Part shown: positions 14,637 through 59,648 of the stretch, piece after piece
Numbering within the stretch: position 1 is the first letter of the stretch
Layout: every line of letters starts with the position of its first letter
Source of the DNA: Leptolyngbya ohadii IS1
GTDB lineage: Bacteria > Cyanobacteriota > Cyanobacteriia > Elainellales > Elainellaceae
Length of the DNA stretch: 64,000 nt
Assembly (NCBI RefSeq): GCF_002215035.1
Contig: NZ_NKFP01000006.1
Location: 1,314,530-1,378,529, forward strand
Direction of reading: 5' to 3'
Translations under genes and position numbers: made by a program
The notes under the pieces: model-generated
Told to the model about the DNA's origin: nothing
The model's input: the letters and a program-made list of their open reading frames with translations, nothing else
Database searches by the model: none

Positions 14637-15410
14637 ATGAGCTTTCCCAGCCTATTTGTTTCCCACGGTTCGCCCGATTTATCGCTGCATTCTGGTAAGT
14701 CCCTCGATTTCTTTAAGCAGCTTGGGCTGCAATTGGGTAGACCTGAGGCAATTCTTGCCATTTCTGCCCACTGGCTTTCCGCAGAACCGACCGTTAGTGG
14801 CGCAGCCCGTCCCGCAACCATCCATGACTTTGGCGGATTTCCAGCGGAGCTGTATCAGATTCAGTACCCTGCGCCCGGTGCGGTTGAGTTAGCGACTGAG
14901 GTTCAATCGCTTCTCACCAATGCCGGATTCGCAGCACAAACCCATCCCGATCGCGGACTGGATCACGGAGTCTGGACACCGCTGATGCTGATGTATCCCG
15001 ATGCCGATATTCCCGTAACGCAGCTTTCCATTCAGCCTCGCCGCGATCCGGCGTATCATTTTCGTCTTGGACAAGCGCTCGCTCCCCTGCGCGATCGAAA
15101 TGTTTTGATCCTGGCGAGCGGTTCCCTGACCCACAATCTGGGCGCTTTAGATCGAGGTAATTTCGCCGCAGATCCCGCGTACTGGGCAGTCGCGTTCGAT
15201 GAGTGGATCAGCCAGACGATCGCCCAGGGCAACACCGAAGCCCTATTGAACTATCGTGAACTGGCTCCCTTTGCGATCGAGAATCATCCGACGGACGAGC
15301 ATCTGTTGCCGCTGTTTGTCGCTGCCGGAGCAGGCGGAAACCATCCGGTTCAGCTTCACGCCGATTTCACCTATGGGTCATTAAGTATGGCGAGTTATGC
15401 TTTTGCGTGA
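14637..15410 (+). CDS. DODA-type extradiol dioxygenase (LigB superfamily)
   Basis: A 257-residue member of the class III extradiol dioxygenase/4,5-DOPA dioxygenase group. Metal-ligand candidates are His in LFVSHGSPD, His in ISAHWLS, His in LDHGVWTPL and His in HPTDEHLLPL. SGSLTHNLGAL is also typical. The ATG at 14637 is preferred over the in-frame TTG at 14622, because the family begins immediately before FPSLFVSHG. Enzymes of this type open catechol rings or act on DOPA, and the physiological substrate in cyanobacteria is unknown. It ends convergent with the dienelactone hydrolase gene, with the two stops nearly overlapping. Confidence 0.85.
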   Translation: MSFPSLFVSHGSPDLSLHSGKSLDFFKQLGLQLGRPEAILAISAHWLSAEPTVSGAARPATIHDFGGFPAELYQIQYPAPGAVELATEVQSLLTNAGFAAQTHPDRGLDHGVWTPLMLMYPDADIPVTQLSIQPRRDPAYHFRLGQALAPLRDRNVLILASGSLTHNLGALDRGNFAADPAYWAVAFDEWISQTIAQGNTEALLNYRELAPFAIENHPTDEHLLPLFVAAGAGGNHPVQLHADFTYGSLSMASYAFA

Positions 15411-16152
15411 TTGTCCAAGACGCTGCTGAATAGCTCCTGTACCCGATTCCAGGCATCCGCTGCCGCCTCTGGCTGATAGCTCGATCGCTGGTCGCAGAAA
15501 AATCCATGCTGGGCATTTGCGTAGCGAAAAATCCGGTGGGGAATGGTGGACTGCTGCAATGCCGCCTCAATTTGATCCACATGGTCGGGCGGAATGCTGG
15601 GATCTTCCATGCCAAAAAATCCGTAGAGCGTCCCCTTGATCTCCGGCGTATAGGCGATCGTTGGTTTTCCGCTGCTTTCACCTATGCCCGGACTCCAGTT
15701 GGAAATGCCCGCCCCATAAAAGGAAGCCGTTGCCTTAATTTCGGGCAAGGTTGCCGCCAGATACACCACTAGTCCCCCAAAACAAAAGCCAATACAGCCG
15801 ATCGCATCCGGATCTACATTCGGTTTGGCGGACAGATAGGCGATCGTGCTGCGGATGTCGCTCAACAGTTCATCGACCCGCGTTTGTTCTTTGTATTTGC
15901 GTCCTAGCTGAATGTCCTCCGGTGTGTAGCCCGTCTCAAATCCGGGAGCTATTCGCTGATAGATAGCAGGGGCGATCGCCACATAGCCTAACTTCGCAAA
16001 GCGATCGGTCACATCGCGGATATGGCTGTTTACGCCAAAGATTTCCTGGATGACGATGATGGCTGGATGGCGATCCGCCTGTGGCGGTTGCGCAGAGCGA
16101 TCGTTTCCATGCTGGGGAGACGGGGGTTCTGCAAGGTAGGCATCGATTTGGA
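15395..16152 (-). CDS. Dienelactone hydrolase family protein, 5' end disrupted
   Basis: An alpha/beta hydrolase of the dienelactone hydrolase family. Landmarks are VIQEIFGVN, nucleophile Cys in IGFCFGGLV, Asp in FFGMEDPSIP and His in NAQHGFF. The stop is at 15395. About 240 residues of native sequence can be read, starting near LQIDAYLAEP, but the true start codon is missing because a 178-bp foldback arm joins at 16153. The reading frame runs on through the palindrome into the amidohydrolase to give an artificial 636-residue frame. It was presumably a separate gene downstream of the amidohydrolase gene on the same strand. Confidence 0.8.
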
Positions 16153-16514
16153 GATTGCCCACAGCGTCATGACCCACGCCCTCGACCAGGATGCCGTTAA
16201 ACAGGCGATCGCCCACACCAGACAGCCAATCGATCGCATCATCAACATTTTCGCTAAAGCGGAAGCCGATCCCTCCGGCACCATCCTTGGACGCAGACAC
16301 ACCATGCTGGACGACTCGGATATTAACCATGCGCGTATGGTTAATATCCGAGTCGTCCAGCATGGTGTGTCTGCGTCCAAGGATGGTGCCGGAGGGATCG
16401 GCTTCCGCTTTAGCGAAAATGTTGATGATGCGATCGATTGGCTGTCTGGTGTGGGCGATCGCCTGTTTAACGGCATCCTGGTCGAGGGCGTGGGTCATGA
16501 CGCTGTGGGCAATC
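16153..16514. repeat. Long inverted repeat (foldback palindrome) inside the amidohydrolase gene
   Basis: Arms 16153-16330 and 16337-16514 are perfect reverse complements of 178 bp, separated by GCGCGT. The right arm is native amidohydrolase coding sequence and the left arm is its inverted copy. The copy replaces the 3' end of the amidohydrolase and the start of the hydrolase gene. Both strands remain open through it, so it creates spurious frames. Origin may be in vivo snap-back replication or an amplification/assembly chimera. Confidence 0.95.
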
Positions 16515-17275
16515 ACAAAGTCGCTGGCGGAGTGGCTGGCGTTTCCCAGGACGAGGATTTCGCAGTTTTGCAGTTCGACCCCGGCAGAGGTAGAAGCGAC
16601 TGAGGAGTAAAGGCTGTAATTAGAGCAGATATCGGCATCGGTGAGCTGCGCCAGATCGATTTCGCCCATTGCCACCGCAACCCCCAGGGCAGAGGCTCCT
16701 CGCGAATATGCCATTGACTGATAGCTGTTACTAGACCGGACAGGCTGTTCCCGTTGGGAGGCAGTGATGAGGGGACACTTAATCTGCACAAAATGCACGT
16801 CTTCCCGCTTCAATCCCGCAGAGTCGATCGCCTGCTGTACCCCGATCGCGACTTCCTGCACCATTGCCACAGTGCCGATCTCCTGAGGCAGAAAATTCCT
16901 GGTGTGGGTGGTTCCCAGGACTAAGCCCCAGCGGCGCGGTGTATCAGGGCTAACTTCCTGGCGGGTAAAGATGGTGAGATGAGGACTTAATACCCCTTCG
17001 GTGCCGCCGGACATAACGTAGATGATCTCCTCGGCGGCAGATTTCACCGCTTCTCGGCTGCGATTGCCCTGCTGGACTGCTATTTGCTCGCTCAGGAAGG
17101 TTTTCAGGGTTTGAACAGCAAAACCCCGTGTAAAATCATTAACACAGCCGTTGCCTTCGGTTTTGCCCATAATGGCAATGATTGTCGCTGGATCTAGTCC
17201 TTCCGCGATCAGCGTTTTAAGCCCGGACAGATCATCGGGACTGCTCTGCGGAATTTTATGAACGTTAACTTTCAT
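16332..17275 (-). pseudogene. Ring-opening amidohydrolase (cyanuric acid hydrolase/barbiturase family), 3' truncated
   Basis: About 313 native residues of the AtzD/TrzD/barbiturase family, which opens cyclic ureide rings such as cyanuric acid or barbiturate. Of the three pseudo-equivalent domains, the first Ser motif is in YVMSGGTEGVLSPH and the second in LGNASHSASD. The third domain is entered (KAEADPSGTILGRRHTMLDD) but lost at the palindrome after DSDIN, before the expected third SGG/EHQGP segment, about 50 residues short of the usual 360-370. The start MKVNVHKIP at 17275 is chosen over 17305 because GGGAGA sits 9-10 nt upstream. It is divergent from a GntR regulator gene, which probably controls it. 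Confidence 0.85.
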
Positions 17276-17502
17276 TGGTGACTGTCTCCCACCGATTCTC
17301 CTCACAGTTCCTCAAGATCATCTCAGAATCATCCCAACATCATCTCAGCAATTTTGGCAATTTTTGCCGCTGGTGCCCTGCTCGAAATGCTCTGCCCGAA
17401 ACGCTCTGCCCGGAATGCCGTCTCTCCGTGCTGTAGCTATCTTCGACGCTCCTCCTTAAAGTTCCTCCTCTGTTAAACGCTTTACCTTTCTTGGAGACTG
17501 CT

Positions 17503-28035: not shown

Positions 28036-29037
28036 GTGAAAAAAGAAGGTAAAGAAAAACAGTCTTTTAAAGATCTTGATTTATCAACAGCAAATTTAAC
28101 ATTAGGTAAGCTAGCTCATCAAATTATTACCGAACAGTTTCAACGGATGAGCAAAAAAAAGGATCAGGTTTTGGAAGATACCGATCCGGAACATCTGCAT
28201 CAAATGCGCGTGAGCACCCGCCGCCTCAGAACCGCGATGCAAATCTTCGATCGGGCTATTCTTTTGCCTAAGAAAGCCGATATTAAACAGGTGCGCGATC
28301 TGGCTCGAATTCTGGGGGCAGTCCGAGATCTGGATGTCCAAGTTGCCAGCCTTCAGGAAGAGTATCTGCCGCAGTTTGAACAGGCGGAACAGAAGCGAAT
28401 TCAGCGAGCGATCAAAGCGCTCAAAAAACAGCGAATTGCTGCATTTCAAAGCATGGAAACTGCTCTGAACGATCGCACCTACCAGTCCCTCCAAAAAGCA
28501 TTTTCCCGCTGGATCGAACAGCCCAAACTTCAGCCGATCGCCCATTTGCCGCTGCTTGCCGTCCTGCCGGATGTGCTGAGTCCGCTGGTGTCCGAAGTGC
28601 TGCTCCATTCGGGTTGGACGATTGGACTCGATCGGATTCAGCCGGAACTTAAAACCGAAAGCGAAACGCTCCACGACCTGCGGAAAGTCTGCAAACACGC
28701 CCGCTATCAAACCGAATTCTTTAAACCTTTCTACGGCGATCCCTTCCACAACTGGATTGAAGAAGTCAAACAAATTCAGGATCAGCTCGGCAGCTTCCAG
28801 GATACCCAGGTACTCCGATCGATGTTAGAACAGGCAATCGGTGGTAAATTTGAACTGCCCCAACTCACCGAAAAAATTCAGCAAAAACAATCCGAAGTTC
28901 TCGCCGATTGGGACACCACCCGCAAAAAGTATCTCGATCAGGGCTTTCGCTACTACCTGCACCAAATGCTGCTTCAGCCCACGATCGATCGCGATCGAGT
29001 CCACCCGGAATTGTTGGGGGAAATTTCAGCAAATTAA
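28036..29037 (+). CDS. CHAD domain protein
   Basis: An all-helical CHAD (conserved histidine alpha-helical) domain protein of about 333 residues. Conserved basic motifs are HLHQMRVSTRRLRTAM near residue 45 and LHDLRKVCKHARYQTEFF near residue 215. CHAD proteins bind inorganic polyphosphate. The GTG at 28036 is preferred to the ATG at 28012 because GGGAGG lies between them at good spacing for the GTG. The last 440 bp are repeated directly at 29182-29622. Confidence 0.85.
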   Translation: MKKEGKEKQSFKDLDLSTANLTLGKLAHQIITEQFQRMSKKKDQVLEDTDPEHLHQMRVSTRRLRTAMQIFDRAILLPKKADIKQVRDLARILGAVRDLDVQVASLQEEYLPQFEQAEQKRIQRAIKALKKQRIAAFQSMETALNDRTYQSLQKAFSRWIEQPKLQPIAHLPLLAVLPDVLSPLVSEVLLHSGWTIGLDRIQPELKTESETLHDLRKVCKHARYQTEFFKPFYGDPFHNWIEEVKQIQDQLGSFQDTQVLRSMLEQAIGGKFELPQLTEKIQQKQSEVLADWDTTRKKYLDQGFRYYLHQMLLQPTIDRDRVHPELLGEISAN

Positions 29038-29088
29038 AAGCAAATTAAAAGCAAATTAAACCTCTAAAAATCCTCCTCGTATCTTCCT

Positions 29089-29113
29089 CGTTCCAATGCT
29101 CTGTGTTGGAACG
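29089..29113. repeat. Hairpin of an interspersed cyanobacterial repeat
   Basis: CGTTCCAA (29089-29096) and TTGGAACG (29106-29113) pair around a 9-nt loop. The element runs on through GGCTCTGCCTCC-like text. It is preceded by three copies of a 12-bp unit GCAAATTAAAA at about 29029-29059. The right side of this repeat is cut by the duplicated CHAD fragment. Confidence 0.5.
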
Positions 29114-29161
29114 CTGATAGAAGGCTCTGCCTCCAGACCCCGTGACTTAGCGGCAGAACCG

Positions 29162-31244
<2,083 letters not shown>

Positions 31245-47728: not shown

Positions 47729-48832
47729 TTACGGCTGAGGCTTGACAACAAAATTTGCTGCTTCTGTTGGGTTGGGCAGCGGTTGCAGCCGTCCCTGATC
47801 CACTAAAGCCTGATGGATAAACGCTGCGACTTCTCCACGGGTTGCAGGGCGATTGGGATTCAGCAGATTCGTTTGAGGGTAGTTCACGACCAGTCCTGCC
47901 TGGGTTGCCTGCGCGACGGAGTTCACTGCATAGGGCGGAATTTGATCGGCATCGGCGTAAAGGCTGGACACGGAAGCCACGGTTTGCGGATCGGGGGCTG
48001 CGGTCTGGGCGGTGGGGCTGGGCTGCGGTGCAGTTCCCGGAGCGGCAGTCTGGGTGGTGGCAGCAGGATCGGGTGTAGTCGCAGGAGCCTGAGGCGCAGC
48101 AGTCCGGAGATTTGCAGCCAGGGCACGGGTGTTGTTCACAAAAGGCTGCATCAGGGAGGTCATTGCCATGGGATACAGTCCAAAAGGACGGCGGTTCCGC
48201 TGACGGCTTGGGGTCTGGGGGGAGTTGGCTGCGGCGTTTGCCTGCGAATTGGGCTGAGAACCGGGCTGGGAATTGGCGATCGCAACACTGCCCTGCGGAG
48301 CGGGACTGCCTGAATTTGCCTGGGGTTGGGTGGCTGGGGTTCGGGCAGACTGAGCATCGGTGAGATTCAGGTTTTTCGCCAGGGAAACCAGGACTTCGGC
48401 TCTAGAAATGCTGCGATCGGGGGCAAAGAATCCGCCCGGATAGCCCTGCATAAAGCCCATTTCGTATGCCTCTTCGATCGCGGGTGCTGCCCAGTAGCCC
48501 TGAGGAACATCGTTGTAGACGCTGCCGCTGGGAATTCGGCGTTCTGCTGCCTGATTAAACGCATTTTGCAAAATGGAGGCGTACTCGTCGCGTCGCACAG
48601 GACGTTCGGGCTGGAAGGTGCCATCGGGATATCCCGCTAAAATTTGCTGCTGCGTCAGGCGTTCAATAAAGGGCTGTGCCCAATAATTTTGCGTATCAGG
48701 AAACGCTGTGCCGCTGTCTGAGGGAGCCGTAGAAGTAGCAAAAACGGCGGGCGGCGGACTCATTAATCCTGCGGTCAGTCCGGCTGTCACGAGTGCTGTT
48801 CCGGCGATCGACCAGCGCGAAAATTGAATCAT
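47729..48832 (-). CDS. SLH-domain envelope protein with Ala/Pro/Gln-rich linker
   Basis: A 367-residue exported protein. It has an N-terminal signal peptide (about 1-32, with the sequence up to AVFATSTAP). Two SLH units lie near residues 43-150: PDTQNYWAQPFIERLTQQQI with AGYPDGTFQPERPVRRDEYA, then VPQGYWAAPAIEEAYEMGFM with GGFFAPDRSISRAEVLVSLA. A long low-complexity linker of Gln/Ala/Pro/Thr (about 165-300) follows, with a final SLH-like unit at the C-terminus. Such proteins attach to peptidoglycan-linked polymers and the outer membrane. The gene start is in the fold-back zone, and its first 205-208 bp recur at 50129-50336 and 50331-50532. Confidence 0.85.
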   Translation of the reverse strand: MIQFSRWSIAGTALVTAGLTAGLMSPPPAVFATSTAPSDSGTAFPDTQNYWAQPFIERLTQQQILAGYPDGTFQPERPVRRDEYASILQNAFNQAAERRIPSGSVYNDVPQGYWAAPAIEEAYEMGFMQGYPGGFFAPDRSISRAEVLVSLAKNLNLTDAQSARTPATQPQANSGSPAPQGSVAIANSQPGSQPNSQANAAANSPQTPSRQRNRRPFGLYPMAMTSLMQPFVNNTRALAANLRTAAPQAPATTPDPAATTQTAAPGTAPQPSPTAQTAAPDPQTVASVSSLYADADQIPPYAVNSVAQATQAGLVVNYPQTNLLNPNRPATRGEVAAFIHQALVDQGRLQPLPNPTEAANFVVKPQP

Positions 48833-48993
48833 AGGTTTCTCCGGGTGATGCTGATAGGGTGATGGTCATAAGTGCTTTTACCGGATTAGCGTAACAAGGA
48901 TGATTTTTTAGCTTCTCCTTCGATCGATAGAGACAGTGCAATTAGAAATAGCTCAATTAGAAACAGCTCAATTAAAAACAGCGCAGCGAGGCG

Positions 48994-49480
48994 CTAGGAA
49001 AGGTAGATCTGTAGCTGCTGTGCTAACTCCTGAACGTGGGGCGGTTTGAGCATCGACAAATGGTTTCCCGGCACCGAATGCACCTGAACCCGATCGCAGA
49101 GTGCATCCCAGCCCATTGCCGGATCGGAGCTGCCGTCGTTCGAGGGATTTGCGGCTTTGAACAGGGTCAGCGTCCCAGCGTAGGGTTTGGGTCGATATCG
49201 ATCGGCTGCCCGGCTGTTGGCATAGAAGATTCGCAGCAGGGGGACGATCGCTGTAATGAGACGGTGTATCTGCTTCCTGCGAATGGGACGTTAAATCATT
49301 TTCTGAAGACCCTATGAATCCTGTTTCTGACAGATTTGATTGTCTTCGGCGATAGGTCGATCGATCCAGCCGCGTAATATTTTGAGCATGGGTTAAGGAC
49401 TGATGGCGCAGTTCGTCAATGATGGGCGCAAGCTGGGCGATCGTGGGAGTTTCAAAGACGCAGCGCAGGGGGAGTTCAAC
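48994..49480 (-). pseudogene. NRPS thioesterase C-terminal fragment (copy A)
   Basis: The minus frame reads RIFYANSRAADRYRPKPYAG on through DRVQVHSVPGNHLSMLKPPH to LAQQLQIYLS and a stop at 48994. The His in VPGNHLSML is the thioesterase catalytic His. This is the genuine thioesterase C-terminus that the long NRPS gene (50694 stop) lacks. From 49238 the sequence jumps, at shared AGGGGGACGATCG, to the linker near 51084, out of frame. An inverted copy lies at 49481-49967 on the plus strand. Confidence 0.9.
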
Positions 49481-50128
49481 GTTGAACTCCCCCTGCGCTG
49501 CGTCTTTGAAACTCCCACGATCGCCCAGCTTGCGCCCATCATTGACGAACTGCGCCATCAGTCCTTAACCCATGCTCAAAATATTACGCGGCTGGATCGA
49601 TCGACCTATCGCCGAAGACAATCAAATCTGTCAGAAACAGGATTCATAGGGTCTTCAGAAAATGATTTAACGTCCCATTCGCAGGAAGCAGATACACCGT
49701 CTCATTACAGCGATCGTCCCCCTGCTGCGAATCTTCTATGCCAACAGCCGGGCAGCCGATCGATATCGACCCAAACCCTACGCTGGGACGCTGACCCTGT
49801 TCAAAGCCGCAAATCCCTCGAACGACGGCAGCTCCGATCCGGCAATGGGCTGGGATGCACTCTGCGATCGGGTTCAGGTGCATTCGGTGCCGGGAAACCA
49901 TTTGTCGATGCTCAAACCGCCCCACGTTCAGGAGTTAGCACAGCAGCTACAGATCTACCTTTCCTAGCGCCTCGCTGCGCTGTTTTTAATTGAGCTGTTT
50001 CTAATTGAGCTATTTCTAATTGCACTGTCTCTATCGATCGAAGGAGAAGCTAAAAAATCATCCTTGTTACGCTAATCCGGTAAAAGCACTTATGACCATC
50101 ACCCTATCAGCATCACCCGGAGAAACCT

Positions 50129-50336
50129 ATGATTCAATTTTCGCGCTGGTCGATCGCCGGAACAGCACTCGTGACAGCCGGACTGACCGCAGGATTAATG
50201 AGCCCGCCGCCCGCCGTTTTTGCTACTTCTACGGCTCCCTCAGACAGCGGCACAGCGTTTCCTGATACGCAAAATTATTGGGCACAGCCCTTTATTGAAC
50301 GCCTGACGCAGCAGCAAATTTTAGCGGGATATCCCG
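50129..50336 (+). pseudogene. Inverted fragment of the SLH-domain gene start (copy B)
   Basis: The plus strand reads the SLH-protein signal peptide and first residues up to QQQILAGYP, then folds back into a non-native frame at 50331. Identical to the true gene start except one synonymous base. Confidence 0.9.
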
Positions 50337-50532
50337 CTAAAATTTGCTGCTGCGTCAGGCGTTCAATAAAGGGCTGTGCCCAATAATTTTGCGTATCAGG
50401 AAACGCTGTGCCGCTGTCTGAGGGAGCCGTAGAAGTAGCAAAAACGGCGGGCGGCGGGCTCATTAATCCTGCGGTCAGTCCGGCTGTCACGAGTGCTGTT
50501 CCGGCGATCGACCAGCGCGAAAATTGAATCAT
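50331..50532 (-). pseudogene. Fragment of the SLH-domain gene start (copy C)
   Basis: The minus strand repeats the first 67 codons of the SLH gene (start 50532), then meets the palindrome centre. It lies 161 bp beyond the NRPS stop, corresponding to the natural spacing between the SLH and NRPS genes, so copy C preserves the ancestral junction. Confidence 0.9.
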
Positions 50533-50693
50533 AGGTTTCTCCGGGTGATGCTGATAGGGTGATGGTCATAAGTGCTTTTACCGGATTAGCGTAACAAGGA
50601 TGATTTTTTAGCTTCTCCTTCGATCGATAGAGACAGTGCAATTAGAAATAGCTCAATTAGAAACAGCTCAATTAAAAACAGCGCAGCGAGGCG

Positions 50694-53600
50694 CTAGGAA
50701 AGGTAGATCTGTAGCTGCTGTGCCATTTCGTAGGCGACCAGTCCGCCAAAAGACCATCCGCCGAGGAAGTAGGGTCCGTGGGGCTGAACGGTGCGGATGG
50801 CGTTGATGTAGTACGCTGCCATTTCCGGGATGCGGTTGAAGGGCAGTTGTTTGCCGTCTAAGCCAAGGGGCTGGAGTCCGTAGAAGCTTCTGGGGATCGC
50901 GAAATCTGTTTCGAGGAGCTGTGCCAGTTCCAGGTAGGGAAAAACGACGCCAAAGATGGGATGAACACAGAAGAAGGGCGATCGCTGGCTGCTAGCTGTT
51001 TGGCTACTAGTCGTTCGGCTGCTAATCATTTTATGAATAGTCAGGGGAACCAGCGGCGACCAATTATTTTTTGGTTTGTTGAAAGGGGGACGATCGCTGT
51101 AATGAGACGGTGTATCTGCTTCCTGCGAATGGGACGTTAAATCATTTTCTGAAGACCCTATGAATCCTGTTTCTGACAGATTTGATTGTCTTCGGCGATA
51201 GGTCGATCGATCCAGCCGCGTAATATTTTGAGCATGGGTTAAGGACTGATGGCGCAGTTCGTCAATGATGGGCGCAAGCTGGGCGATCGTGGGAGTTTCA
51301 AAGACGCAGCGCAGGGGGAGTTCAACGTTGAATCGATCGCGGATACGGGAGGTCATTTGAGTTGCCAGCAGGGAATGTCCGCCCAGTTCAAAGAAGCTGT
51401 TGCTTGGGTCTGCGTCGGGCTGTCGCAGTAGCTCTTTCCAGATGTCCAGCAGGGCAAGTTCTGTGGCAGTGTGGCTTGTGGAACCGGAGGAATCTAAATG
51501 ATCATCTGTGGGTTGGGATGATGGGGCAGGATAGGGATTTTGCTGCTGTAGGGAGGCGCGATCGATTTTGCCATTTGCGTTGAGGGGCAAGGTTTCCAGG
51601 GGAGTAAAGGCAGCAGGAATCATGTAGTCGGGCAGGGTTTGCCGCAGATGGGTGCGAAGAGCGGGAATGATCTGGCGGGCAATTTGGGACTGAAGGGGAT
51701 TATTGGTGTAATGATGCCAGGGGAAATTCTGGAATGCGTGATCAGACTGATGTGTAGCGAAATCGACGGGGATATCAGTCAGTGAATCGATTAGTGACTG
51801 TGAATCGATTAGTGACTGTGAATCAATCAGTGACTCGATCGCAAATTCAATGTCTGCCATACTGCCATGCCGAATAAACGCGACATCATAGTCTCCCGAT
51901 GATCGATCGATCGCCCAATTTATTTCAATTCGGTAGGGCAAAATGGTCTCCAGCTCCCACCAGTCCTGTGGAGCGGTCGCGTTCTTTTCTAAGTTCTGGA
52001 GCGTCTTCCGAAACTGTTCTACGGTTTTGGGTGAAGCTTTGCGGTAGAGCCATTCAGTCGTCCGTAGCGCATCATAAACGCGATCGTTTGCAATATTTTT
52101 AATCCCAAAACGATCGGGCTGATGCTCAAGCAGGTATTTCTTGACTTCGCTGACCATTAGCTTTTGGGTTTTCCAGTTTATCCACTGAATTGATTGTGAA
52201 GGCGATCGGTCTTCGTTCTCGTTTAAGTTATTTCCCTCAAGATGCAGGACAACGCTATAGCGAAACTGATTCATCTCATTGCGGTGATGTCCTTTCGCTA
52301 AACGAATCTCTACTCGTTGAATGCCGGGAAATCTTTGGCGCAACGCCGTAAAGAAAGCGGGATCGATCGCCAGTTCGGATTCCTCAAATCGCGATCGTTC
52401 GACCTGCTGTTGAAGCAAGGTACGCTCCGTTGTTCCTTCGGCTTGAAACAGTTGAACCTCGGCGTGGAAGGCAGTCAGCAGCGGTAGGCTTCGCACATCT
52501 CCCAGAAATATCGCACCCCCCGGACGAACGGACTGCACTGCACCTGCAATCACCTCCAGCAAATAGTCAACGCTGGGAAAATACTGCACCACGGAGTTGA
52601 GAATGACCACATCGAATGTCGCTGATTCAATTCCTCTAAAATCCGTTGCCGATCGCTCTAATAGTTTCACCTGCGACAAGCTCAGCCGATCGACCTGTTG
52701 CTGAACGGTTTCCAGCGAAACGGCAGAAAAATCGGAGCCGTAATAAACCTCACAGTGGGGCGCAATCTGAAACAAAACCAGCCCTGTCCCGCAGCCGATT
52801 TCTAAAACTCGTTTTGGCTGAAGTGCCAGAATTTGCTGTACGCGATCGTCTAGCCATTCGCGCATCTGTTCCGCTGGAATTGGTTTTCCGGTATAGCTGC
52901 TGTTCCATCCAGTAATGTTAAAGGTGGGATCGAATTGTTGATGCGTTTGCGGGGAGTAGGTCTGGTTATAGAGCTTTTGCCACTGTCCAACCTGTTGCGC
53001 CTGAAGGGTTTCATTCGCCTGGGATGTGTCAATTTCCAGGAGCGAGGGCAGATTGTGAATTGGATGATTCAGACTGAAATAAGCAATGAGCTGTTTATCC
53101 TGGGAAGCTTTGCCGACGGGTAAAACGATCGCCTCTCGGATTGCCGGATGCCGTTGCAGGATAGCTTCAATTTCCCCCGGTTCAACTCGAAAGCCACGAA
53201 TTTTAATCTGGTCGTCCGATCGTCCGCAGAATTCTAGATTGCCGTTTGCGCGATATCGAACCCAATCGCCTGTGCGGTAAAGCTGCTGTCCAGGATGAAA
53301 CGGACTGGAAATAAACCGCTCCGCCAAATCAGGACGATTCAAGTAGCCCCGTGCCACGCCTGCGCCGCCAATATACAGTTCGCCCATAATCCCGATCGGC
53401 ACTGGCTGAAGCTGACTATCCAGCACATACACCTGCGTATTTGCCACCGGACGACCAATCAGCGGTTCATCTCCGGGACGCAGTTCCGCCGCCGTTGCCC
53501 AGATCGTGGTTTCCGTAGGTCCATAGGCATTGAAGAAGCGCCGATCCACTGCCCAGCGATCGATTACCGCAGAGGGACAGGCTTCGCCGCCAGTAATTAG

Positions 53601-56600
53601 AGTTTTTAGATCAGGCAAATCCGCAGCGGGCAAAACCGCCAGAACCGCCGGAGTCAGCAGCGCATGGGTAATGGCTTGCTCCTGCAAATAGTGGATTAAA
53701 TCCGTACCGGGCATCCGAGCCGCTTTGGGCGGAATGTAGAGCGTTCCCCCCGACCCGATCGCCAGTGCCATCTCAAACACCGAGGCATCAAAACTGATCG
53801 AACTAAACTGAAGCACGCGAATGTTAGACGGAAGCTCAGGCGATCGATCGGACAGCCCCAAAAGCTGATGCTGTGCTGCGACCACGTTACAGAGTCCCCG
53901 ATGGGTGAGCATCACGCCTTTCGGAATTCCAGTAGAGCCAGAGGTATAGATGACGTAGGCAAGGGAATCGGGATTGGGAAGTACTGTGGTGTCTGATAGA
54001 TCCTGGAAGCCTCCTAAATCCCCTATTCGTAAATTGCCGCTCTTCAGAAGTGAGGGGGGATTTTGAACGGGGGAATTTTTCTGTTGCAAAAGAACTGCCT
54101 GCGATGGCTCGGTTCCCCGCACTCGCTCCTCAGGAGCGGAAAAAATAGATGGGGGGCTAGGGGGGCGAACTACAGGTGAATTAAATAACGGTTCTTCTGT
54201 TGAATCGATCGATCGATCCAAACAAATCATCTCTACATTCGATTCTGGTAAACCCTCGACCAACCCCGATTGAGTCAGCAAAACTTTCATCTGCGTATCG
54301 CCCAGGATAAACGCAATCCGATCGCTGGGATAGCCGGGGTCGATCGGCACATAGGCTGCGCCCGCTTTGAGAATGCCTAGAATGCCAATTAACCAATCCG
54401 CAGAACGATCGGTACAGAGTCCAGCGAGTTCATTTTGCTGTATGCCAAGCTGTCTTAAAGTGTGTGCCAGACGATCGGCTTTAGCGTTCACTTCGGCATA
54501 GCTGAGCGAGGTAAATTCTGTGACGATCGCTATCTTGTCGGGGAACTTTTGCACCTGTTGTTCAAATAAACCGTGAAAGCCGCGATAGGGTTCCAGAGGC
54601 GCTAGGCGATACTGTTCCAGGAACGCTCCGCGATCGGATGAAAACTCAAGTTCTGTTTGATTCCAGTCTGTTAAAAGCTGCTGACGTTCAGCGGACATTA
54701 GCAAAGGCAAATCGGACAGCCGCGCATCGGGATTCGCCACAATGTTTTCCAGCAGCGTTTGGAAATGTCCGACCAGCCGTTCAATCGTAGAGCGATCGAA
54801 TAAATCTGTGCTGTAGGCGATAAAGCCGCTCAAGCCCGCCTCGGATTGCCACAGGCTGCGAAGTCCGTGGGTGGGTTCCCACAGATGCACTTCCAGGTCG
54901 AAGCGAGTAGTTTGTGGTTCCAGCGGTAGGGGAGTTAACTGAATTCCGGGGAGTTCTAATGGCTGCATGGGGGCGTTTTGCAGGGCGAAGGCAACCTGAA
55001 ACAGGGGATTGCCGCTTAAATCGCGTTCCGGATCAAGTTCCTCCACCAGTTTCTCAAACGGTAAATCCTGATGTTGATATGCCTCCAGCGCCACGTTTCG
55101 CACCTGCATCAACAGTTCCCGAAAGGTGGGATTCCCGGATAAATTCGATCGCATCACCAGGCTATTCACAAAAAATCCGATCAGCCCTTCTAGCTCGCTG
55201 CGATGCCGATTGGCAATGGGAGAACCGATCGCGATATCGGTCTGTCCCGTGTAGCGGTGCATCAGGGTTTGGAACGCCGCCAGTAAGGTCATAAACAGCG
55301 AAACGCCTTCCTGCTGGCACAAATCTTCGATCGCTTCTGTAAGTTGGGGAGAAAACTGAAGCGGAACGGCTGCACCGCGATAGGTCTGCACGGCGGGACG
55401 GGGATAGTCGATCGGTAAATCCAGCCGCGAAACCTCCTGAAGCTGCGATCGCCAGTAGGCTAACTGTTTTTCTAGCACGTCGCCCTGAAGCCACTGCCGC
55501 TGCCAGCAGGCAAAATCCCCGTATTGAATGGGTAACGGAGCCAGTTCCGCTGCCCGTCCTTCCATTCCTGCCTCGTAAAGTTCTGCCAGTTCTCGAATCA
55601 GCACGCCGAGCGACCAGCCATCCGCAACAATGTGGTGCAGCGTCAGCAGCAAAATTGCCTCTGATTGATCTGCTTGTTCGCTCACTTGTAGCAGCGTGAC
55701 CCGCAGGGGTAAATCGATTGCCAGGTTGAATGGACGCTGGAATTCTGCGGCAGTAAATTGCTGGATAATACGATCGCGATCGCGTAGCGCTCCTGGAACC
55801 GTATCGCGGGTTCCTTGCAGGAGTGACCGCAAATCGATCGTAGATAATGGAATATTTGCGGAAATGTTTGCGTCCGGTGAGATAACCTGAACGGGTTCCC
55901 CATCCACAATCGCAAAGGTTGTTCTCAAAGCGGCATGGCGACGGATAATCTCATGAAACGATCGCTCCAGCAAATCGGGATTAATCGCTCCGGTGAGGCG
56001 AATAGCCGCAGTCACATTGTAAAAGGGATTATCGGGCGAAAGCTGATAGAGAAACCAGAGACGCTGCTGGGCAAAGGATAGAGGAAAGGTTGTGGTCTGT
56101 TGGGGCTGTTCAATTCTGGCGATCTGCCTGTGGCGGTTGCGCGAAGTGGTCGGGGCGCTAAGAGCAGCTAAGGAACGATGCAGCAGATCTTCCGGATTAG
56201 AGTGTTGGGAATCAGAGTGTTGGGAATCAGAGTGTTGGGAATAAAGAAATTGAGGGGCGATCGCTTCGATTCGGGCTGCCAGGGCTGCGATCGTCGGGAA
56301 TTCAAACACCTCGCGCAGGGGAATTTCCACCTGAAATCGATCGCGGAGACGAGACACAAGCTGAGTTGCCAGGAGGGAATGTCCGCCCAGCTCAAAGAAA
56401 TTATCGTGAATGCCAACGGTGCGTCCCAGCAATTGCTGCCAGAGATGAACGAGGGATTGCTCCAGGGAAGTGGTGGGTAACGCAGCAGGGAGGATAGGAG
56501 GAATGACGTTGAATATGGGAGAGGGTAAGGCACGATGATTCACCTTGCCGTTGGGTGTCAGAGGCAGACTGTCCAGCATCACAAATGCGGCAGGCAGCAG

Positions 56601-59600
56601 GTAGGCAGGCAGTTGGGTCTTGAGGAATTGGCGCAACTCGGTTTCTGTAAGCTGCGATTGCCTTCCCGCTTTAGGAACGAGATAGGCGATCAGCTGACGC
56701 TCCGCTTCTCCTTCCCGTACCGTCACTACTGCCGTTTCAATATCGGGATGCTGGGTCAGAATCGCTTCAATCTCGCCCAACTCAATCCGAAAGCCGCGAA
56801 CCTTAACCTGATGGTCTGTCCGTCCCAAAAACTCAAGATTTCCCTTTGCATCGTAGCGGGCACGATCGCCTGTTCTGTACAGCCTTTGCTGATTTACCGG
56901 ATGATGGACAAACCGTTCTGCCGTTAGCTGTGGCTGATTCAGATAACCCTGCGCTAAACCATTTCCACCCAAATAAATTTCGCCGATAACTCCCAACGGA
57001 ACGGGCATCAGGCTGGTATCCAGCACATACACCTGCGTATTCGCGATCGCCTGACCAATTGGAATCGTCGTGTCATTCTCCGGAACGTTCTCAACTTCAT
57101 ACCACGTTGAAAAAGTTGTATTCTCCGTTGGACCATAGACATGAATTAAGTGCTGAGGTTTTCCCTGCTGGAGAATTGTTCTGATGCGATCGGGATTCGC
57201 TGCCTCACCGCCAAATAGCAGGTAAGTAAGCGATCGAAAAGCGTCCGGAATCTGGCTGACCGTTTGATTTAGCAGAGCCGTCGTCAGAAACATCACTTCG
57301 ATCTGCTGCTGCTGAATTTCCTGGGTAAAATCTGCCGGGGACAGGAGCATTTCGCGATCGATACCCACCAGACAGCCTCCGTTCAGCAATGCACCCCAGA
57401 CCTCAAACGTCGCTGCATCAAACGCTAAATTTGCTGCCTGAGCGATCCGCACTCCCGGCTGAAGCTGCACATAATCTGGATGACACACTAGCCGTCCGAT
57501 CGCCCGATGCGGGACGATGACCCCTTTTGGAGTTCCCGTTGAACCGGAAGTGTACATGATATAAGCAGGCTGATCATTCGCTGTAGGGTTTCCCAGATTC
57601 TCCCCAGATTGCTGCGCGATCGTTTCCCACTCCTGATCCAGGTAGATAGCTCTGCTCTTGCGTCCCAGTGCATCTTGTAATAAATGCTGCGATCGCGAAT
57701 CGGTTAGTATGATCGTCAATTCTGCATCTTCAATCATGAAACGCAGTCGTTCCAGCGGATAATCTGGGTCGAGCGGCACGTAGGCTGCACCCACCTTTAG
57801 GACTGCCAGCATGGCGGCGATCGTTTCGGCTGACTGTCCCAAACCAATTCCGACCCGCATTCCCGATCGAATTCCCAGTTTTGTTAAATATCGGGCAAGC
57901 TGATTGCTGCCGTAATTCAGTTCGCCATAGGTAAACTGATGCTGTCCAAACTGAAGGGCGATTTGCTGGAGCTGTTGATGTGCCTGAATTTCAAACAGAC
58001 GAGCGACGCTCAAATCCTGCAAATAGGAATGCAAATAATTACTTTGAATCTGGCGATCGAGGATTCGCTGCTGTTCTGCCTGCGCCATCAAGGGTAATGC
58101 AGACAAACGGGTTTCTGGCTGTGCCACAATGCCTTCCAGCAAATACTGGAACTGCTGCCGCAACCGGGCAATCGCCGCCTCATCAAACAAATTCCGGTTG
58201 TAGACCATCACGCCCCGCAGACCGTCCGATCGCTGCCAACCCTTGCCCCACAAACTTCTGAAATCACCGTCGCACTTCCAGAGATACAGTTCCAGGTCGA
58301 AGCGCGTTGTCTCCGTCTCAAACGCAACCGGGCTGAGCGTGAGTCCCGGCAGTTCAAGCTGACTCATGGGCGTATTTTGCAGCGCAAACACCACCTGAAA
58401 CAGCGGATTTTGATGCAGGCTGCGAACGGGTTGCAGTTCCTCTACCAGTTTTTCAAACGGCAAATCCTGATGGTCATACGCCGCTAACGTAACTTCCCTG
58501 ACCCGATCGAGCAGCACCCGAAAGGGCGGATCATCTGACAGATCCGATCGCAGCACCAGGCTATTCACCAAAAAGCCAATGAGTCCTTCCAGCTCACTCC
58601 GATGTCGATTGGCAATGGGGGAGCCGATCGCGATATCGGTCTGTCCGGTGTAGCGGTGTAGAAGCGTTTGAAAGGCGGCAAGCAGGGTCATAAACAGCGT
58701 TACGCCTGCGGTCTGGCTCAGTTCTTCTAATCGATCCAGCAGATTTTGCGGCAGTTCGATGAGCTGGCTCGCTCCCTCATGGTTCTGGATTTTAGAATGA
58801 TTCGATGTTTTATTTGGTGAATGATCTGACGAATGATCTGATAAATCATCCGATGAATGCTCTGATAAATTTTTTAATGAATCATCCGGTAGCCGTTTTG
58901 ATAAACGATTAACTGAAGCGATCGCGGATAAATTCAGTGGGGACAGATCCCGAAGCTGCTGCCGCCAGTAGTCTAGCTGCATTTTGAGCAGATTTCCCTG
59001 AAGCCATTGCCGCTGCCAGTGGGCAAAATCGCCGTACTGAACGGGCATTTCGGGCAAAATGGAAAGCCGCTCGCCCTGCAATCCCTGGCTGACGCCCGCC
59101 GCATAAAATTCACCGAGTTCGCGAATCAGAACCCCGCTCGACCACTCATCAAAAATAATGTGATGCAGCGCAATCAGCAGCAGATGATCGGTTTCGCCAA
59201 TCTGCCAGAGCCTGAGCCGAAACAGCGCCCCCCGGCTGAGATCAAACGGCTGCTGTGTAATTTGACGAATCTGTTGCAGCGCCAATTCTTCGGCACAGAT
59301 CGCGATCGGCAAATCCACCTCAATCGGACGCGACGCCGCTTCTCCACTGCGGAAATCATGAACGACCTGAACAAGCTGCCCATTGACAACATCAAAGGTA
59401 GTTCGTAAAACTTCGTGGCGACGGACAATTGCCTCAAGGCTCTGTTGCAGTGCCGATCGGTTCAGGTTTCCCGTGAGCCTCAGGAGAATGGGGATTATGT
59501 AGGATGCAGTGCCGGGTATCAACTGCTCAATAAACCAGAGACGCTGCTGGGCAAACGAAGCCGGAAAAACTAAAACTTCTTCCTCGATCGATTCCCTGAT

Positions 59601-59648
59601 TTTCGATTCCCTGACCTCGTGATATTTGTCCTGCCGATAATTCGCCAC
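50694..59648 (-). CDS. Non-ribosomal peptide synthetase: C-A-PCP-C-A(MT)-PCP-partial TE
   Basis: A 2984-residue two-module NRPS. C1 spans about residues 27-500 (HHIIFDEWS near 161; note Glu for the usual Gly of HHxxxDG). A1 is about 555-1045 (YIMYTSGSTG, RTGDRARYD, NGKVNHRALP) and PCP1 is about 1060-1110 (GGHSLLATQL). C2 follows (HHIVADGWS near 1336). A2 is about 1685-2700 (YVIYTSGSTGIPKG, ends NGKIDRAS), with an N-methyltransferase inserted after residue 2210 (VLEIGCGTGLV near 2279). PCP2 (GGHSLLATQM) is near 2755. The thioesterase begins near 2880 and reaches its Ser motif GWSFGG, but the following Asp/His part is lost and the frame ends QLQIYLS. By-eye specificity codes are DAFFLGVTFK (branched-chain hydrophobic, tentative) and DAFLIGAIWK (unassigned). 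A leading C domain suggests an acylated or upstream-loaded N-terminus. Product: a peptide with an N-methylated second residue. Confidence 0.92.
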   Translation of the reverse strand: MANYRQDKYHEVRESKIRESIEEEVLVFPASFAQQRLWFIEQLIPGTASYIIPILLRLTGNLNRSALQQSLEAIVRRHEVLRTTFDVVNGQLVQVVHDFRSGEAASRPIEVDLPIAICAEELALQQIRQITQQPFDLSRGALFRLRLWQIGETDHLLLIALHHIIFDEWSSGVLIRELGEFYAAGVSQGLQGERLSILPEMPVQYGDFAHWQRQWLQGNLLKMQLDYWRQQLRDLSPLNLSAIASVNRLSKRLPDDSLKNLSEHSSDDLSDHSSDHSPNKTSNHSKIQNHEGASQLIELPQNLLDRLEELSQTAGVTLFMTLLAAFQTLLHRYTGQTDIAIGSPIANRHRSELEGLIGFLVNSLVLRSDLSDDPPFRVLLDRVREVTLAAYDHQDLPFEKLVEELQPVRSLHQNPLFQVVFALQNTPMSQLELPGLTLSPVAFETETTRFDLELYLWKCDGDFRSLWGKGWQRSDGLRGVMVYNRNLFDEAAIARLRQQFQYLLEGIVAQPETRLSALPLMAQAEQQRILDRQIQSNYLHSYLQDLSVARLFEIQAHQQLQQIALQFGQHQFTYGELNYGSNQLARYLTKLGIRSGMRVGIGLGQSAETIAAMLAVLKVGAAYVPLDPDYPLERLRFMIEDAELTIILTDSRSQHLLQDALGRKSRAIYLDQEWETIAQQSGENLGNPTANDQPAYIMYTSGSTGTPKGVIVPHRAIGRLVCHPDYVQLQPGVRIAQAANLAFDAATFEVWGALLNGGCLVGIDREMLLSPADFTQEIQQQQIEVMFLTTALLNQTVSQIPDAFRSLTYLLFGGEAANPDRIRTILQQGKPQHLIHVYGPTENTTFSTWYEVENVPENDTTIPIGQAIANTQVYVLDTSLMPVPLGVIGEIYLGGNGLAQGYLNQPQLTAERFVHHPVNQQRLYRTGDRARYDAKGNLEFLGRTDHQVKVRGFRIELGEIEAILTQHPDIETAVVTVREGEAERQLIAYLVPKAGRQSQLTETELRQFLKTQLPAYLLPAAFVMLDSLPLTPNGKVNHRALPSPIFNVIPPILPAALPTTSLEQSLVHLWQQLLGRTVGIHDNFFELGGHSLLATQLVSRLRDRFQVEIPLREVFEFPTIAALAARIEAIAPQFLYSQHSDSQHSDSQHSNPEDLLHRSLAALSAPTTSRNRHRQIARIEQPQQTTTFPLSFAQQRLWFLYQLSPDNPFYNVTAAIRLTGAINPDLLERSFHEIIRRHAALRTTFAIVDGEPVQVISPDANISANIPLSTIDLRSLLQGTRDTVPGALRDRDRIIQQFTAAEFQRPFNLAIDLPLRVTLLQVSEQADQSEAILLLTLHHIVADGWSLGVLIRELAELYEAGMEGRAAELAPLPIQYGDFACWQRQWLQGDVLEKQLAYWRSQLQEVSRLDLPIDYPRPAVQTYRGAAVPLQFSPQLTEAIEDLCQQEGVSLFMTLLAAFQTLMHRYTGQTDIAIGSPIANRHRSELEGLIGFFVNSLVMRSNLSGNPTFRELLMQVRNVALEAYQHQDLPFEKLVEELDPERDLSGNPLFQVAFALQNAPMQPLELPGIQLTPLPLEPQTTRFDLEVHLWEPTHGLRSLWQSEAGLSGFIAYSTDLFDRSTIERLVGHFQTLLENIVANPDARLSDLPLLMSAERQQLLTDWNQTELEFSSDRGAFLEQYRLAPLEPYRGFHGLFEQQVQKFPDKIAIVTEFTSLSYAEVNAKADRLAHTLRQLGIQQNELAGLCTDRSADWLIGILGILKAGAAYVPIDPGYPSDRIAFILGDTQMKVLLTQSGLVEGLPESNVEMICLDRSIDSTEEPLFNSPVVRPPSPPSIFSAPEERVRGTEPSQAVLLQQKNSPVQNPPSLLKSGNLRIGDLGGFQDLSDTTVLPNPDSLAYVIYTSGSTGIPKGVMLTHRGLCNVVAAQHQLLGLSDRSPELPSNIRVLQFSSISFDASVFEMALAIGSGGTLYIPPKAARMPGTDLIHYLQEQAITHALLTPAVLAVLPAADLPDLKTLITGGEACPSAVIDRWAVDRRFFNAYGPTETTIWATAAELRPGDEPLIGRPVANTQVYVLDSQLQPVPIGIMGELYIGGAGVARGYLNRPDLAERFISSPFHPGQQLYRTGDWVRYRANGNLEFCGRSDDQIKIRGFRVEPGEIEAILQRHPAIREAIVLPVGKASQDKQLIAYFSLNHPIHNLPSLLEIDTSQANETLQAQQVGQWQKLYNQTYSPQTHQQFDPTFNITGWNSSYTGKPIPAEQMREWLDDRVQQILALQPKRVLEIGCGTGLVLFQIAPHCEVYYGSDFSAVSLETVQQQVDRLSLSQVKLLERSATDFRGIESATFDVVILNSVVQYFPSVDYLLEVIAGAVQSVRPGGAIFLGDVRSLPLLTAFHAEVQLFQAEGTTERTLLQQQVERSRFEESELAIDPAFFTALRQRFPGIQRVEIRLAKGHHRNEMNQFRYSVVLHLEGNNLNENEDRSPSQSIQWINWKTQKLMVSEVKKYLLEHQPDRFGIKNIANDRVYDALRTTEWLYRKASPKTVEQFRKTLQNLEKNATAPQDWWELETILPYRIEINWAIDRSSGDYDVAFIRHGSMADIEFAIESLIDSQSLIDSQSLIDSLTDIPVDFATHQSDHAFQNFPWHHYTNNPLQSQIARQIIPALRTHLRQTLPDYMIPAAFTPLETLPLNANGKIDRASLQQQNPYPAPSSQPTDDHLDSSGSTSHTATELALLDIWKELLRQPDADPSNSFFELGGHSLLATQMTSRIRDRFNVELPLRCVFETPTIAQLAPIIDELRHQSLTHAQNITRLDRSTYRRRQSNLSETGFIGSSENDLTSHSQEADTPSHYSDRPPFNKPKNNWSPLVPLTIHKMISSRTTSSQTASSQRSPFFCVHPIFGVVFPYLELAQLLETDFAIPRSFYGLQPLGLDGKQLPFNRIPEMAAYYINAIRTVQPHGPYFLGGWSFGGLVAYEMAQQLQIYLS
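53995..54190. repeat. Intergenic-type repeats inserted in frame in the NRPS A2 domain
   Basis: Within the coding sequence, between the A2 core and YVIYTSGSTG, about 60-65 extra residues (about 1820-1886) are rich in Pro/Ser (VVRPPSPPS, PPSLLKSG). On the coding strand the DNA reads GTTCGCCCCCCTAGCCCCCC, then GGGGAACCGAGCC, then CCCCCGTT and GGGGATTTAGGAGGC. These are the same repeat families found between genes at 22041-22068 and 40120-40164. The frame is kept and no stop arises. Confidence 0.85.
56196..56240. repeat. 15-bp tandem repeat in the NRPS inter-module linker
   Basis: AGAGTGTTGGGAATC is repeated three times, encoding QHSDS units on the minus strand between PCP1 and C2. The period is a multiple of three, so the frame survives copy-number change. 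Confidence 0.85.

What the first reader, a model, noticed from the sequence alone, without database searches (positions are those of the whole stretch)
48625..50723. A-B-C triple fold with palindromic centres: tandem-inversion-duplication architecture at the SLH/NRPS junction
The same region appears as copy A (48625-49480, minus sense), inverted copy B (49481-50336) and copy C (from 50331, minus sense). Arms of 856 bp and 393 bp have zero spacer. Both fold centres (TTCAACGTTGAA and CGGGATATCCCG) are natural 12-bp palindromes present singly elsewhere: 51321-51332 in the NRPS and 48625-48636 in the SLH gene. This head-to-head/tail-to-tail triplication at short palindromes is what tandem inversion duplications look like in bacteria. 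Whole-genome amplification foldbacks could produce the same. Copies B and C share a base that A lacks.
Basis: partly seen in the sequence, partly recalled or inferred. Interest (0 to 1): 0.75.

Follow-up and report, generated by a model that had tools for sequence, protein, structure and literature searches.

The report
Folded DNA triplicate, probably an artefact
A stretch of a cyanobacterial genome is written three times, back and forth like a folded ribbon, but it lacks part of a gene that relatives keep and similar perfect folds recur in this assembly, so it is most likely a false bridge across a sequencing gap rather than a real rearrangement.

Summary
The fold is in the sequence: A 48625-49480, inverted B 49481-50336, C from 50331, turning at two natural 12-bp palindromes. 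The 99-residue lid of the NRPS thioesterase, present in a same-genus relative, has no match in the 7.9-Mb assembly.

The fold is not alone. About 1.65 Mb sampled of this genome holds 12 folds (arms at least 60 bp, gap at most 250) at ten loci; 0.8 Mb from two single-contig relatives holds none. Of 19 junction views, 13 share 10-12 exact nt and 3 share 10-12 columns with one mismatch; almost none is shorter. One fold cuts the start off tadA, a gene recalled to be essential.

A tandem inversion duplication should lose nothing. I judge a mis-bridged assembly or library gap most likely (0.62). Against it: one base differs between copies, a k-mer path model failed, and several genes beside folds are whole. 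In vivo fold-back repair stays possible; intact SbcC and SbcD genes make long palindromes surprising. Raw or native long reads would decide.

The parts
47729..48832 (-). SLH-domain protein gene (367 aa), whole; left flank of the mosaic
   Evidence: ORF; three PF00395 stretches
48625..49480 (-). Copy A: SLH gene start, intergenic region, thioesterase C-terminus, then, after deletion 1, the region after the carrier protein
48625..48636 (.). Natural palindrome CGGGATATCCCG in the SLH gene (template of fold centre 2)
48758..48758 (.). Only base at which A differs from B and C; silent in the SLH protein
49238..49251 (-). Deletion-1 join (word of about 14 nt, AGGGGGACGATCGC on +); the native partner on the lid side is missing, so the length is partly inferred
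49475..49486 (.). Fold centre 1, TTCAACGTTGAA
49481..50336 (+). Copy B: exact inverse of A, deletion 1 included, except one base
50325..50336 (.). Fold centre 2, CGGGATATCCCG
50331..50723 (-). Copy C: repeats the start of A up to deletion 2
50713..50723 (-). Deletion-2 join (word of about 11 nt, AGCTGCTGTGC on +); one native partner missing
50697..59648 (-). NRPS, 2984 aa, ending in a truncated thioesterase (PF00975 positions 2-88 of 226)
51084..51332 (-). Native copy of the 249-nt segment inserted in A and, inverted, in B; ends with the natural palindrome 51321-51332

Best explanation
The A-B-C structure is a false bridge across a stretch that was never correctly sequenced or assembled (the thioesterase lid and its neighbourhood). 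Shown: the copies and junctions, the lack of any match to the lid in the assembly, and the same kind of mosaic at ten loci in about 1.65 Mb sampled. Inferred: at each such gap the flanks were extended through chance words of about 10 nt or more until they met. A palindromic word turns the walk back on itself and gives a zero-spacer fold; a direct word gives a jump that looks like a deletion. The native chromosome would run from the SLH gene into an intact thioesterase. Which program or library step did it is not known.
For: The lid is missing: a 201-residue thioesterase end of the relative matches the own assembly only at residues 116-201, in copies A and B; the Pfam thioesterase covers 2-88 of 226 against 2-219 in the relative. 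Recurrence: 12 folds in 1.663 Mb counted, 0 in 0.8 Mb of two single-contig relatives (P(0)=0.003 at the own rate); with gaps to 1 kb 21 against 0. Junctions: 13 of 19 views share 10-12 exact nt, 3 more 10-12 columns with one mismatch, although chance words of 8 and 9 nt are 16 and 4 times commoner than 10-mers. L136 reads X, X inverted, Y inverted, Y, with exactly 10 nt at the meeting point, and the start of tadA is lost. A published gap closer accepts a merge of two extensions at 10 nt or more by default (PMC3446322, passages). Scattered N in three sampled stretches show a draft-grade consensus in places.
Against: A is not identical to B and C, which pure copying in silico would not give. The mosaic is not the shortest k-mer path between the flanks: at two loci with 16 settings each, 17 of 32 gave a path, every one shorter than the observed, and 15 gave none. 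The bridges are longer than the relative's spacing (about 1486 against 298 nt here, about 1171 against 630 at L136; by hand), while the cited closer also demands a fitting length. Several joins per locus are more than one closing step makes. Genes beside some folds are whole (enolase, CHAD protein, Na/H exchanger domain, copper amine oxidase). In the tangled L118 two junction views are short, 2 and 7 exact nt. The own stretches were not chosen at random.
Confidence: 0.62

Rival explanations
1. In vivo double fold-back repair: a break in the lid is resected, each 3' end primes on itself at a nearby palindrome and copies back, and the ends are joined by a microhomology of about 10 nt.
For: The X-X'-Y'-Y order at L136 and the lost middle are what it predicts; centres are natural palindromes; one base differs between copies.
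Against: About ten recent scars in 1.65 Mb with practically identical copies and the start of tadA gone; SbcC and SbcD genes are present and open.
Confidence: 0.15
2. Chimeras of whole-genome amplification (phi29 MDA or PCR-based) carried into the consensus.
For: Amplified DNA yields many palindromic reads, and inverted duplications in an assembly have been attributed to it (PMC6218980, passages); a polymerase error would explain the single differing base.
Against: In MDA 337 of 348 chimeras within 10 kb are inverted, and junctions use 2-21 nt or none (PMC1855051, passages); here 8 of 24 are direct (hand sorting; p=5e-7) and almost none is under 10 nt. Contigs of 1.4-4.3 Mb would be unusual for amplified DNA (inference).
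Confidence: 0.13
3. A true tandem inversion duplication between the two palindromes, followed by two separate deletions.
For: Three copies in alternating orientation with turns at natural palindromes; one diverged base.
Against: Information is lost from every copy; A and B share one deletion and C has another, both removing the lid; the same kind of mosaic recurs at nine other loci.
Confidence: 0.1

Closest known systems
False gap closure by short overlaps (GapFiller as a documented example, PMC3446322)
   Same: Joins at 10 nt or more, lost middle, material only from the two flanks
   Different: Several joins per locus, filled length unlike the relative's spacing, mosaic not the shortest k-mer path; the tool actually used is unknown
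Tandem inversion duplication of Salmonella (Kugelberg 2010; recalled, seen here only in a reference list)
   Same: Head-tail, tail-head, head-tail copies with palindromic turns
   Different: No intact copy remains, and ten loci of this kind occur in the sample
Origin-dependent inverted-repeat amplification in yeast (PMC4689423, passages)
   Same: Inverted triplication at short inverted repeats
   Different: Its abstract states that no genetic information is lost; here the lid is lost; an origin in the copied segment was not tested
MDA chimeras (PMC1855051, passages)
   Same: Inverted local joins at short complementary words
   Different: Far more direct joins here, and almost no overlaps under 10 nt

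Membership tests
Tandem inversion duplication | Three tandem copies, the middle one inverted | tested here: met
Tandem inversion duplication | Turns at short natural palindromes | tested here: met
   12 bp each
Tandem inversion duplication | Copied information kept, at least one intact copy | tested here: not met
   lid without a match in the assembly
Tandem inversion duplication | Present in native DNA at raised copy number | not testable with these tools
   no reads available
ODIRA | Replication origin inside the copied segment | not tested
   no origin search was made
MDA chimera | Close-range joins overwhelmingly inverted | tested here: not met
   8 direct of 24 by hand, against 11 of 348
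MDA chimera | Junction complementarity spread over 2-21 nt, or none | tested here: inconclusive
   lengths lie inside the range but 16 of 19 views have 10-12 columns
Mis-bridged assembly gap | Minimum overlap at joins | tested here: met
   16 of 19 views with 10-12 columns, one longer, two shorter in L118
Mis-bridged assembly gap | True sequence between the flanks missing | tested here: met
   thioesterase lid, tadA start, end of the AtzD-type gene; the enolase locus could not be compared because its flanks are apart in the relative
Mis-bridged assembly gap | Mosaic equals the shortest k-mer path between flanks | tested here: not met
   0 of 32 settings at two loci
Mis-bridged assembly gap | Contradicted by raw reads | not testable with these tools
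   no reads available

The most novel reading that the evidence does not exclude
The folds are real scars of a repair route in this cyanobacterium: broken ends prime on themselves at palindromes, copy up to about 0.9 kb, and are joined by a microhomology of at least about 10 nt. Extrapolated from ten loci in about 1.65 Mb this would be roughly 40-50 recent scars per genome, and perfect palindromes of up to 1.7 kb would be tolerated despite intact SbcC and SbcD genes.
Probability: 0.15. Interest if true: 0.8.

Novelty: not a real feature. Interest (0 to 1): 0.22.

Why it matters
If artefact, the record misreports an NRPS without a working release domain, a tRNA deaminase without its start, and other damaged genes; anyone mining this genome for peptides, or bacterial genomes for inverted duplications, would be misled. 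A cheap screen (close perfect folds plus a fixed minimum overlap at the joins) would flag such assemblies. If real, it would be a burst of fold-back repair on a scale I did not meet in the passages I read.

Tried and rejected
Identifying the organism: the own genome did not appear among the 32 loci of the named collection, whose note says that such records may be left out. My guess of a particular JGI draft strain was recalled and never tested, so it is not used; the paper search, one paper on a different strain read whole (PMC8223812) and passages of another (PMC9120777) did not settle it.

Phi29 amplification as the main cause: disfavoured on the direct/inverted ratio and overlap lengths, kept as a rival.

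A simple path-search model of a gap closer: failed at both loci tried, 0 of 32 settings.

Loss of SbcCD as the reason for long palindromes: rejected, both genes are present (SbcD frame 549 aa, C6:3561411-3562193; SbcC frame 1045 aa, C6:2211161-2214274).

Diverged copies as proof of age: L118 gave 95% alignments, but its exact matches are identical inside the segments, with the mismatches towards the ends. The identity table lists, among own inverted pairs of 100 bp or more, 11 at 99-100%, 4 at 97-99%, 3 at 90-97%, 1 at 80-90% and 5 below 80%; three pairs (L118, L119, L136) fit the 90-97% class, the six weaker ones I did not examine.

The first palindrome scan was flooded by runs of N, which count as their own complement; it was repeated without them.

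Controls: 468 kb of other loci (L019-L063) also had 0 folds, but they come largely from drafts that would break at such folds, so I rely on the two single-contig relatives. In those, (first 400 kb) found one near-identical inverted pair (1162 bp arms, about 1.8 kb apart) and four direct pairs. The own sample was not random: the window, its neighbourhood and stretches of my choice, 81 in all; L070 and L143 overlap by 13.7 kb, so 1.663 Mb counted is about 1.65 Mb distinct. Leaving out the window's own four folds gives 8 in 1.6 Mb and a chance of about 0.02 for the empty control (by hand). Folds with arms of 30-40 bp (L102, L142) and the still smaller ones in L065, L082 and L138 are not in the counts.

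Junction views were chosen by me from the lists. The 24 joins sorted as direct or inverted are; unclear joins in L118 were left out.

Papers for the overlap setting of gap closers: PMC4922053 and PMC5668418 (passages) said nothing on it; PMC3446322 did.
Full report
What is there. The window holds two zero-spacer palindromes that share one arm. Copy A (48625-49480) is followed by its inverted copy B (49481-50336), and B by C (50331-50723), which repeats the start of A. A differs from B and C at one base, 48758, silent in the SLH protein. The turns are at TTCAACGTTGAA and CGGGATATCCCG, each also present as natural sequence (51321-51332 and 48625-48636).

The segment 49238-49486 is also a direct copy of 51084-51332. 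Copy A encodes the thioesterase C-terminus, AIVPLLRIFYANSRAADRYRP...NHLSMLKPPHVQELAQQLQIYLS, in one frame, joined by a deletion to the region after the carrier protein. C joins GGWSFGGLVAYEMAQQL to QIYLS and a stop by another deletion. Nine relatives' loci were aligned: seven read through to a whole end, and two (L058, L059) start the lid but stop early or shift frame. In the same-genus relative G001, 99 residues lie between MAQQL and AIVPL. The window's NRPS (Pfam: two condensation, two AMP-binding and two carrier stretches, and a methyltransferase) ends in a thioesterase covering positions 2-88 of 226; the relative's covers 2-219. A search of the own assembly with the relative's 201-residue thioesterase end matches only residues 116-201, in copies A and B; the short piece kept in C is too small to be listed. 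So the lid has no match in the assembly.

Is it alone? No. 81 own stretches (1.663 Mb counted, about 1.65 Mb distinct, not random) hold 12 folds with arms of at least 60 bp and gaps up to 250 bp; 0.8 Mb from two single-contig genomes of the same family hold none (P(0)=0.003 at the own rate; about 0.02 without the window's own four, by hand). With gaps up to 1 kb it is 21 against 0. The ten loci are window 16.2, 29.6 and 48.6 kb, L078 (about 2 kb left of the window), L084, L086, L099, L118, L119 and L136; L111 is a mosaic of direct copies only. 468 kb of other loci gave none either, but many are drafts that would break at a fold. One control genome has a near-identical inverted pair with a wide gap of about 1.8 kb.

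How the mosaics are joined. For 19 junction views, chosen, the chimera was laid between its two parents. Thirteen share 10-12 exact nt, three share 10-12 columns with one mismatch, two in the tangled L118 are shorter (2 and 7 exact), and one there is a 32-nt shared stretch. The two deletion joins of the 49-kb locus (about 14 and 11 nt) have only one parent left and are not in this count. Chance words of 8 and 9 nt are 16 and 4 times commoner than 10-mers, so a smooth preference should have produced many. Direct joins are 8 of 24 by hand sorting, against 11 of 348 MDA chimeras within 10 kb (PMC1855051, passages; p=5e-7).

What the folds damage, and what they do not. At L136 the order against the relative is X, X inverted, Y inverted, Y, with exactly 10 nt between the inverted parts. 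X holds tadA: the relative reads MTQAIELAQAAGEAGEIPVGAV; here what precedes LAQSAGEAGEIPVGAV comes from the fold. The product matches the TadA model from position 13 of 165, with 147.4 bits against a cut-off of 150. The chimeric frame is open upstream, so a product with a foreign start is not excluded. The genome has three other deaminase-type hits of 43.8, 41.9 and 29.6 bits; whether one could stand in was not tested, and that tadA is essential in most bacteria is recalled. The cyanuric acid amidohydrolase at the 16-kb fold matches its model to 335 of 364 and runs in one frame into a dienelactone hydrolase; an M28 peptidase at L078 ends at 178 of 193. Against this, the enolase and the CHAD protein at the 29.6-kb locus, the Na/H exchanger domain at L111 and the copper amine oxidase at L099 are whole.

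Explanations weighed. A tandem inversion duplication keeps its information, as the abstract of the ODIRA paper says for inverted triplications (PMC4689423, listing, passages). This structure does not, and two separate deletions would have to remove the same lid from all copies. SbcC and SbcD genes are present, so tolerance of a 1.7-kb palindrome is not explained by their absence. A mis-bridged gap explains the lost middle, the local material, the near-identity of the copies, the recurrence and the overlap floor; a published gap closer has a default minimum overlap of 10 nt (PMC3446322, passages). Against it, the mosaic is not the shortest k-mer path (17 of 32 settings gave a path, all shorter; 15 gave none), the bridges are longer than the relative's spacing (by hand), and one base differs between copies. 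Fold-back repair at both ends of a break followed by microhomology joining would give the same anatomy in a living cell, and I keep it as the most novel reading.

Verdict. Observation confirmed; tandem inversion duplication not favoured; most likely a false bridge (0.62). I do not claim that such a genome-wide pattern is absent from print: the searches were narrow.

Noticed in passing
G000 C1:1318825-1319232: A second place 71% identical in DNA to the start of the window's SLH gene and its surroundings.
   Followed up: no
window 15398-17311 (-): A gene scoring over the cut-off for cyanuric acid amidohydrolase (AtzD type) in a cyanobacterium, read in one frame with a dienelactone hydrolase through a fold.
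   Followed up: partly
window 28535-30240: Enolase 5' region inverted over 314 nt at a natural palindrome, next to a direct copy of about 460 nt of a CHAD-domain gene; enolase and CHAD domains are whole.
   Followed up: partly
L078:17071-17967 (C6, about 2 kb left of the window): 436-nt fold inside the end of an M28 peptidase gene.
   Followed up: partly
L136:15936-18006: tadA and aldehyde dehydrogenase ends folded back and joined by 10 nt.
   Followed up: yes
L066, L067, L142: Many scattered single N (239, 64 and 112 bases), in L067 within what looks like a 16S rRNA gene (recognised from recall), as in a consensus of conflicting reads.
   Followed up: no
L119:18763-19234: Near-perfect tandem duplication of 238 nt in a gene that looks like a sensor kinase.
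   Followed up: no
window 48928-49000: Short tandem units of 15 nt between the SLH gene and the NRPS.
   Followed up: no
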